A stretch of 64,000 nucleotides of DNA from Isoperla grammatica (taxonomy: Eukaryota > Arthropoda > Insecta > Plecoptera > Perlodidae). This document shows, piece after piece, positions 58,776 through 60,840 of this stretch (positions are counted from its first letter, which is position 1; each line of letters starts with the position of its first letter). A program made the position numbers and the translations under genes. The notes below the pieces were generated by a model that saw only the letters and a list, made by a program, of their open reading frames with translations, made no database searches and had not been told where the DNA came from. The stretch lies in NCBI GenBank assembly GCA_945910005.1, contig OX246747.1, positions 12,119,035-12,183,034 of the forward strand, written 5' to 3'.

Positions 58776-58804
58776 GCCCCAGTAAGGGGAAATCACAAAC
58801 CACA

Positions 58805-60230
58805 ATGGAAACGGCAAGCTTCGTACCCATTGACCCGAGACCCGGATTCCCGTTCAACTATCAACCGTCCAGGATCGACAGAAATGCGTTATTCGCATTA
58901 AATAAAGTGCTCGACCCAGGCAAAGTTGGTGAAGTTAGAACGAAGTATCATCGAGCTCATCTGAACGTAGACGATCTACGCGCTGACCTCGCTGAGTACA
59001 GCAGTCCAAAGGCACCCCGACACCACAGCAATGCTTATTATGCTATATATGAGAGCGTTGACCGAGATATTTTCGGCGACATCTTTATTACTCCGCTCAC
59101 ACATGGAGCAGTAGGAAAGCAACCTGATCTGCCAAAGTCAGAATCACCTGGCTTACCACTCAAATTGCAGGGTTACAAAACAAAAGGAGAAGCTCTCGCT
59201 GATCCACAGGTTTTAAATAACATCCGCAAGGAATGGTATGCTATAGAACGAAACGAGAAAAGTACAACTACCCGACGTAGCGTGTTACGCACGTGCGCAA
59301 ATTTGCAGTAGAGATAAAAATAAAGTAAGAGCCACATGGGGTTACCCATTGACAGTTTATTTAACTGAAGGCCAGTACTTTTATCCACTTCTTAACGCAC
59401 TGAAGAACCGCTCAAAGCCGAAAGTAGCGTACGGCATCGAAATAGGGACTGGAGGCATGAACTTCGTCAACGAAATGGCGTAACAAACAAGCGAAGGAAA
59501 CTACTTTGTAGGAGACTGGTCAAAATTTGACAAAACAGTACCTGCATGGCTTATCGGAGACGCATTCAAAATGATTTTGCGACACATCGACACAGCACAC
59601 GTAATGTGTTCTGGAGGAAAAATCTGGCCTGTACGTCACTCAAAGACCATGGTTAGATTCCGAAAGATGGTTCAATATTTCATTGATACACCTGTACAGC
59701 TAAGTACTGGAGAGCGATTCATAAAACATGGCGGCGTGCCATCTGGATCGTGCTTCACAAACTTGGTTGACGGCATTATAAATGCACTCGTCACTAGATA
59801 TGTCATATACAACATGACTGAACAACTACCAATTGATGACGTGTATTTAGGCGATGACATCTTCGCCATAACAGAACGACCACTAGATTTGGAAATGTTC
59901 TCGGCTATAGCAATGGATCAATTCTCCATGCGCTTCAACGCAGAGAAGAGTTATCAAACTAGCGAGATAACAAACATCCACTTTCTAGGATATTTTAACA
60001 TGCATGGCGTTCCGTACAAGCCTATTGATACAGTAGTAGCTTCATCTATATACCCAGAACAACCAGTGAGATCCAAGTTCGAAACAATCGTCAGAATGAT
60101 CGGCCAAGCATATTCATGCTTTGAACCATCGGACGCGACAAAATTTTTCCGAGCAGCAGAGATTCTCCGACAAGAAGAGGGCGATGTAGAAAATGAAGAT
60201 ATTACAGAGTTTTCAAAGGGGCACACACAG
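58805..60230 (+). pseudogene. Endogenous partitivirus-like RNA-dependent RNA polymerase
   Basis: ATG at 58805 opens a frame with PIDPRPGFPFNYQPSRIDRN, later KSESPGLPLKLQGYKTKGEA. A one-base insertion in the A-run at 59258-59261 shifts frame, and an in-frame TAA lies at 59481-59483. From there the frame is open to the end. Polymerase motifs appear in order: GDWSKFDKTVPAW (motif A, first Asp), GVPSGSCFTNLVD (motif B), DVYLGDDIFAI (motif C, GDD intact), then the FLGY and GHTQW blocks. This set and the SPGLP/GYKTK region are characteristic of Partitiviridae, bisegmented dsRNA viruses of fungi, plants, protists and arthropods. Length is about 475 codons, close to a complete polymerase. No poly(A) tail is seen. 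It lies antisense within a gypsy integrase. Confidence 0.93.
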
Positions 60231-60840
60231 TGGTCCTCCTTCCATGACGAACGAATACCTAACATGACCCATGGAAGGTGGTCCGTCCATCGCTCCCCCT
60301 CGTGACACTTGAGCGCTGTCTTAAGTTGTCGATGGAGGCGTTCCACCATACCATTGGCGGCCGGGTGGTAGGCAGTGGTTCGAATGAGAGTAGTGCCTGT
60401 CAGGTGGTTCAATGACCTGAAAAGGCACGACTCAAATTGGCGACCTTGGTCAGAGATGATCCGTAGAGGCGTCCCGAAGCGTGAGATCCACCCGGAGACG
60501 AGGGCGGATGCGACGGTGGCTGCGGTGATATCAACAATCGGGATTGCCTCGGGCCAACGCGTGAACCGGTCCACACATGTCAACATGTAGCGAAAACCGG
60601 CCGACTCTGGAAGAGGACCGACCAGATCGATGTGGATATGCTCGAATCTCACTCCCGGGACCTCGAAGTGTTCAACGGGCGCAGAGACGTGGCGCGTGAC
60701 CTTCGATCGTTGGCACGCCATGCAAGTGCGTGCCCACTCCCTTAAATCTTTCCGCATGGAAGGCCACACAAAACGGTGTGATACCAAGCGAGCGGAGGCA
60801 GCGATGCCGGTGGGACAGACTGTGGAGACTGTCAAACACT
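60231..60840 (-). pseudogene. Ty3/gypsy integrase zinc-binding and catalytic core
   Basis: Minus frame: HRFVWPSMRKDLREWARTCM and ACQRSK (zinc-binding end), then HIDLVGPLPESAGF (first Asp), IISDQGRQFESCLF (second Asp), and AANGMVERLHRQLK (Glu). All three catalytic residues are present. It breaks off after LPWVMLGIRSSWKED, exactly where viral sequence begins. A frameshift near 60800-60835 separates it from the RNase H frame. Confidence 0.92.

What the first reader, a model, noticed from the sequence alone, without database searches (positions are those of the whole stretch)
58790..60235. Nearly full-length partitivirus-like polymerase fossil in an animal genome
Seen: motifs A, B and C (GDWSKFDKTVPAW, GVPSGSCFTNLVD, GDD) in the right order and spacing over about 475 codons, with an N-terminal Met. 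Damage is light: a one-base insertion at 59258-59261 and a TAA at 59481-59483. Known: this motif set marks Partitiviridae, dsRNA viruses with no DNA stage and no integrase. Inference: an ancestor of this animal, or a parasite or food organism with access to its germline, carried such a virus, and the insertion is fairly recent.
Basis: partly seen in the sequence, partly recalled or inferred. Interest (0 to 1): 0.95.

Follow-up and report, generated by a model that had tools for sequence, protein, structure and literature searches.

The report
Virus polymerase fossil inside a retrotransposon
This stretch of animal DNA holds a broken DNA copy of the polymerase gene of a partiti-like RNA virus, lodged backwards inside a damaged gypsy retrotransposon; such viral fossils are known, and this one adds an example that may show how the virus RNA became DNA.

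Summary
[quoted passage not shown] The start is natural, but the last 64 residues of the closest relative are missing: about 88% of the polymerase. It is a non-retroviral endogenous viral element (EVE). It sits antisense inside the integrase gene of a damaged Ty3/gypsy element, replacing about 100 bp or somewhat more, with no target-site duplication found and no poly(A) seen. I favour copy-choice capture by the gypsy reverse transcriptase; insertion of a viral cDNA into a resident gypsy copy by break repair leaves nearly the same footprint and is not excluded. Closest relatives are unnamed proteins (64-68% identity in segment 3), an RdRp-like gene of the barnacle Amphibalanus amphitrite (62%) and an ant partiti-like virus (47%). 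Partiti-like RdRp EVEs in arthropods, and EVEs embedded in LTR retrotransposons, are both published. This is a new member of a known kind. 'Fairly recent' is not shown; the host species was not identified.

The parts
58780..58804 (+). junction zone and probable remnant of the viral 5' untranslated region
   Evidence: gypsy homology stops between 58728 and 58779 by relative; the RdRp Met codon is at 58805; origin of these bases inferred
58805..59257 (+). RdRp segment 1, with a Met 3-7 residues from where relatives start
   Evidence: 65% identical to P0005 over 148 residues, 55% to P0024 over 156
59251..59262 (+). frameshift lesion between segments 1 and 2
   Evidence: frame of homology changes here
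59259..59480 (+). RdRp segment 2
   Evidence: 82% identical to P0008 over 73 residues
59481..59483 (+). in-frame TAA
59484..60232 (+). RdRp segment 3 with motifs A (59511-59549), B (59733-59771) and C GDD (59850-59858); 3' end truncated, edge uncertain (60212-60245)
   Evidence: Pfam RdRP_1 7.9e-23; 64% to P0001, 68% to P0003; motif positions
60233..60808 (-). Ty3/gypsy integrase, part before the insertion
   Evidence: Pfam rve and Integrase_H2C2; most two-sided gypsy relatives' matches end at 60233
60810..61934 (-). Ty3/gypsy reverse transcriptase and RNase H; frame changes to the integrase at 60808-60810
58312..58779 (-). Ty3/gypsy integrase C-terminal part resuming beyond the insertion, with one or two in-frame stops
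   Evidence: tblastn of the same gypsy relatives, later in their sequence
61954..62321 (.). SINE-like repeat interrupting the same gypsy element
   Evidence: near-full-length copies at 6203-6574 (95.7%) and 41767-42134 (94.4%)
62628..63997 (-). upstream gypsy region: DUF7041 domain (gag by inference) and a protease-like match below the cut-off; the element continues past the window end

Best explanation
A non-retroviral endogenous viral element: a DNA copy of the first 88% or so of the RdRp of a partiti-like virus, lying antisense in the integrase gene of a damaged Ty3/gypsy retrotransposon (shown). The polymerase is broken by a frameshift, a stop and loss of its C-terminus, so it should make no working enzyme (from sequence, if the assembly is right). 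Most likely route (inferred, about 0.5): viral RNA entered gypsy particles, the gypsy reverse transcriptase switched from gypsy RNA to viral RNA and back, replacing about 100 bp or somewhat more of the element, and the chimeric cDNA was integrated by the gypsy integrase. Today it is a passenger; gypsy-sense transcription, if any, would make RNA antisense to the viral mRNA (orientation shown, transcription not tested).
For: Homology of each segment on its own; the predicted fold of segment 3 (pLDDT 77.9, pTM 0.62) has as best named viral matches the RdRps of Hubei partiti-like virus 7, Netjeret virus and Wenling partiti-like virus 2 (rank 1 is an unnamed Riboviria fragment). Both flanks are gypsy integrase on one strand: 19 of the 120 gypsy proteins searched match on both sides, 18 of them with 32-49 of their residues skipped. 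No direct repeat of 7 or more between the two edges; the longest, 6, is reached in 153 of 300 shuffles. No poly(A) seen by eye. GC 0.439 in the insert, 0.516 and 0.551 in the flanks. Precedents: an EVE flanked by Ty3/gypsy sequence and over 200 Sindbis virus-LTR element hybrids in Aedes cells (PMC6797480); a nodavirus-like RdRp inside a BEL/Pao element (PMC5177903).
Against: Break repair with a small deletion leaves nearly the same footprint, and in TE-rich DNA a gypsy target can be hit by chance. The gypsy 5' end, its LTR, its target-site duplication and other copies lie outside the window, so it is not shown that the chimera moved as one unit. One of the 19 gypsy proteins (P0122) aligns with a 12-residue overlap instead of a gap. 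A GC change-point search agreed with the right edge (60216) but not the left (59031). The lesions could partly be assembly errors. In basal hexapods no retroelements were found near EVEs (PMC6955108).
Confidence: 0.6

Rival explanations
1. The same EVE, but viral cDNA made elsewhere (by any reverse transcriptase) was joined into an already resident gypsy copy during repair of a double-strand break, with loss of about 100 bp or somewhat more.
For: No target-site duplication found, no poly(A) seen, 32-49 gypsy residues skipped in 18 of 19 relatives; TE-rich window.
Against: Requires a separate source of cDNA and a chance hit; direct virus-LTR element hybrids are documented elsewhere.
Confidence: 0.35
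2. Function beyond a passenger: the antisense viral insert gives rise to piRNAs or siRNAs against a related virus, under gypsy or piRNA-cluster transcription.
For: Antisense orientation to gypsy transcription; EVE-derived antisense piRNAs in Aedes; partiti-like viruses give antiviral small RNAs in sea lice (PMC10287012).
Against: No small-RNA or expression data here; a single embedded fragment is also what a neutral insertion looks like; the closest relatives found are at most 68% identical where most of segment 3 is compared, probably too far for small-RNA targeting (inference).
Confidence: 0.1
3. Assembly chimera or contamination by viral cDNA.
For: Only one sequence available and no reads seen; the own-genome search did not complete.
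Against: Two coding lesions and a truncated end are not expected of a live virus; both flanks belong to one gypsy integrase gene; comparable insertions are published.
Confidence: 0.03

Closest known systems
Amphibalanus amphitrite RdRp-like gene (KAF0302415.1 in PMC12027680; P0002 is taken to be this record by organism and name, accession not checked)
   Same: partiti-like RdRp in a barnacle assembly (372,603-base contig); 62% identical over 242 residues of segment 3; same clade of 12 rows, support 98/96
   Different: lies inside a separate group of 5 rows (98/97) without the window; its genomic surroundings were not examined
Arthropod-associated partiti-like viruses: Linepithema humile partiti-like virus 1 (P0012), Hubei partiti-like virus 7, Wenling partiti-like virus 2
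   Same: same RdRp family; ant virus 47% over 209 residues, Hubei 7 40% and Wenling 2 34% in the structural alignment
   Different: recorded as viruses; more distant than the unnamed P0001, P0003 and P0008
eBxnv-1, nodavirus-like RdRp in a BEL/Pao element of Bursaphelenchus xylophilus (PMC5177903, passages)
   Same: degenerate LTR retrotransposon with an RNA-virus polymerase inside; copy-choice proposed
   Different: nodavirus and BEL/Pao, in a nematode; reported as expressed
CFAV EVE with Ty3/gypsy flanks, contig 000933F of Aag2 cells (PMC6797480, section 9)
   Same: RNA-virus fragment flanked by Ty3/gypsy sequence
   Different: flavivirus NS2A fragment in a piRNA-producing cluster with small-RNA evidence; here no such data

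Membership tests
Partiti-like RdRp (Durnavirales) | RdRp motifs A, B, C in order with GDD | tested here: met
Partiti-like RdRp (Durnavirales) | closest relatives are partiti-like RdRps | tested here: met
   of the 24 hits only 3 name an organism or virus group
Partitiviridae | two dsRNA segments with a separate capsid gene | not testable with these tools
   only a polymerase fragment is present; Pfam was run on 18 ORFs of the window only
Partitiviridae | place among the recognised genera | not tested
   no reference partitivirus of a recognised genus was in the tree
Non-retroviral endogenous viral element | viral gene joined to host DNA in one contig and carrying disabling lesions | tested here: met
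Non-retroviral endogenous viral element | junctions confirmed by reads or orthologous loci | not testable with these tools
   no reads; own-genome search unanswered
Ty3/gypsy element around the insert | RT, RNase H, then integrase on one strand | tested here: met
   gag inferred from DUF7041, protease match below cut-off
LTR-retrotransposon capture by copy-choice | virus flanked on both sides by the same element, collinear | tested here: met
   18 of 19 two-sided gypsy relatives, P0122 overlapping
LTR-retrotransposon capture by copy-choice | chimera integrated as a unit (both LTRs, element target-site duplication, further copies) | not testable with these tools
   the element runs beyond base 64000; genome not searchable
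LINE-mediated insertion | target-site duplication and poly(A) at the insert | tested here: not met
   (by eye)
piRNA-producing EVE | antisense small RNAs from the insert | not testable with these tools
   no small-RNA data

The most novel reading that the evidence does not exclude
The locus is a mobile gypsy-partitivirus chimera caught after a double template switch, and its antisense layout under the gypsy promoter once gave inheritable RNA interference against the virus. I saw no description of a dsRNA virus captured by a gypsy element in the two paper searches on that point (0 papers, 18 papers, one of which I opened).
Probability: 0.07. Interest if true: 0.75.

Novelty: new member of a known kind. 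Interest (0 to 1): 0.4.

Why it matters
Partiti-like viruses have no DNA stage (established knowledge), so each fossil records an infected ancestor or associate and a reverse-transcription event. Here a candidate reverse transcriptase stands around the insert, which makes the route testable at one locus: if copies with identical junctions exist elsewhere in the genome, the virus-retrotransposon hybrid was itself mobile. It also adds a data point to partiti-like viruses as infections of invertebrate animals rather than only of their fungi.

Tried and rejected
IMG/VR scans with segment 3 (7 pattern matches) and with alignment A1 (17 pattern matches) gave no confirmed relative. The host-gene protein search (335 hits, 120 listed) gave mostly unnamed or prokaryotic RCC1 proteins of at most 35% identity and did not name the host. 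tRNA and Rfam scans: 0 hits each. Considered and rejected: LINE-type insertion (no duplication found, no poly(A) seen); a second RdRp copy in the window; a gypsy family that carries RdRp as an accessory gene: PF00680 labels on P0026 and P0051 are taken as RT-RdRp cross-matches without further test. Sequence matches to picornavirus polymerases in the PDB (best E 0.0011) and structural matches to noroviruses (best E 2.3e-6) and astroviruses are much weaker than the partiti-like ones. Passages of PMC6191289 held nothing on partitiviruses.

Full report
What was checked. The polymerase call rests on three open segments, each treated apart. Segment 3 (59484-60232) holds motifs A, B and C at 59511-59549, 59733-59771 and 59850-59858 and matches Pfam RdRP_1 at E 7.9e-23; segment 2 is below the Pfam cut-off (E 0.021) and segment 1 has no Pfam match. 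A protein search with segment 3 found 24 proteins with E <= 0.001 among 127 candidates; 22 of 24 carry PF00680. Against those 24, segment 1 matches 8 (best 65% over 148 residues), segment 2 matches 10 (best 82% over 73), segment 3 matches 24 (best 64% over 250 residues, E 2.3e-125). So the three segments belong to one polymerase gene of one virus lineage. The search tool admits only proteins up to 1.75 times the query length (about 477 residues), so longer full-length partitivirus polymerases could not appear.

Extent and damage. The Met codon at 58805 lies 3-7 residues downstream of where the starts of P0005, P0024 and P0012 would fall; the frame is open upstream to 58730. P0001 aligns up to residue 373 of 437 at 60233, so 64 residues are missing. 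The right edge is not exact: P0003, P0017 and P0010 align on to 60242, 60245 and 60287, and some gypsy proteins align down to 60212. The frame shifts once around 59251-59262 and TAA stands at 59481-59483. Of single substitutions 4.8% would create a stop; two lesions are compatible with a neutral divergence of roughly 0.3-5% over the values tried, depending on the indel rate assumed. That does not date the insertion, since neither host nor rate is known, and the gypsy around it also carries a frame change (60808-60810), one or two stops in 58312-58779 and an inserted SINE-like repeat.

Relatives. In a tree of segment 3 with 20 of the 24 hits (P0020 and P0022-P0024 left out), the window falls in a clade of 12 rows with support 98/96, together with the Amphibalanus protein, but its place inside is open; no smaller supported set holds it. 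Nearest by path are P0001, P0003, P0008 and P0009, all without organism names. The ant virus P0012 lies in another group. The model of segment 3 has mean pLDDT 77.9 and pTM 0.62, with residues 72-88 under 50. Among viral models rank 1 is an unnamed Riboviria fragment (38% identity) and the best named matches are Hubei partiti-like virus 7 (E 8.6e-19, 40%), Netjeret virus (33%) and Wenling partiti-like virus 2 (34%); among solved structures the best eight are norovirus polymerases at 12-14% identity. The database name of P0012, 'putative capsid', conflicts with its PF00680 domain; I take it as a labelling slip.

Surroundings. On the minus strand a Ty3/gypsy element runs from beyond base 64000: a DUF7041 domain (63188-63997), a protease-like match below the cut-off, RT and RNase H (60810-61934), integrase (60233-60808). 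Of 120 gypsy proteins compared with the window, 19 match on both sides of the virus. In 18 of these the match stops at 60212 or 60233 and resumes at 58728-58779 after skipping 32-49 of their own residues; the proteins whose matches reach furthest on the left (P0081, P0087, P0037) skip 32-33. One, P0122, stops at 60296 and overlaps by 12 residues instead. I conclude that about 100 bp or somewhat more of gypsy are missing. Between 58740-58812 and 60212-60262 there is no direct or inverted shared word of 7 or longer; the longest direct word, 6, is reached in 153 of 300 shuffles. Base composition is 0.551 in the right flank, 0.439 in the insert and 0.516 in the left flank; a two-point GC search placed the edges at 59031 and 60216, which fits the right edge only. 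On the minus strand a purine-rich run followed by TGTGGGGG near 58254 may mark the start of the 3' LTR; this is read by eye and not tested.

Mechanism. Shown: a truncated, broken viral gene in reverse orientation within one gypsy integrase gene. Inferred: copy-choice by the gypsy reverse transcriptase. PMC6797480 (passages, and section 9 read) reports more than 200 Sindbis virus-LTR element hybrids in Aedes cells and a flavivirus EVE flanked by Ty3/gypsy LTR and gag sequence; passages of PMC5177903 describe a nodavirus-like polymerase embedded in a degenerate BEL/Pao element, for which its authors proposed copy-choice and knew one earlier natural example. Break repair into a resident gypsy copy is the main rival and I cannot separate the two without the rest of the element and the genome. 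A third suggestion in print, that partitivirus RdRps themselves reverse-transcribe RNA (PMC12027680, section 15), would supply cDNA for the rival.

Known or new. PMC12027680 (passages, and sections 9 and 15 read) reports 52 partitivirus RdRp-like proteins in cellular genomes, over half in insects, and names Amphibalanus amphitrite KAF0302415.1. Passages of PMC6540820 report four partiti-picobirna RdRp EVEs in ants; of PMC6955108, endogenous partitiviruses in Machilis with well conserved coding capacity, and no retroelements near EVEs; of PMC10287012, virus-derived small RNAs from partiti-like viruses in sea lice; of PMC10142142, partiti-like viruses of copepods and amphipods. PMC4573495, a survey of crustacean EVEs, does not hold the word start 'partiti' in its main text. 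Ten paper searches were made. The two that bear on a partiti-like EVE with a gypsy element are 0 papers; 18 papers, of which I opened one, PMC5177903; I saw no such description, which is weak evidence of absence. The finding is therefore a new member of a known kind with an informative location.

Limits. The host is not identified: BEL/Pao domains (Peptidase_A17, DUF5641; BEL/Pao as an animal group is recalled) and the named arthropod gypsy relatives point to an invertebrate animal, probably an arthropod (inference). No reads, no sister genome and no small RNAs were available.

Noticed in passing
61954-62321 and 26 matching segments elsewhere in the window: A SINE-like repeat of about 370 bp is dense here: one search lists 26 further matching segments at E <= 1e-5, two of them near full length (6203-6574, 41767-42134).
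   Followed up: partly
24380-25823 and 26932-27880: Two stretches of long, overlapping, repetitive ORFs on both strands, minisatellite-like; no tandem-repeat program was run.
   Followed up: no
5091-7465, minus strand: A host gene with RCC1-type repeats and a Sina-type RING domain, with SINE-like copies at 5080-5314 and 6203-6574.
   Followed up: partly
17975-22364, plus strand: A BEL/Pao-type retrotransposon with Peptidase_A17 and DUF5641 domains.
   Followed up: no
56913-57174: A 131-bp tandem duplication, 97% identical.
   Followed up: no
31471-34193: Pieces of further LTR elements: integrase zinc-binding domain on plus, Arc-like capsid domain (below cut-off) on minus.
   Followed up: no
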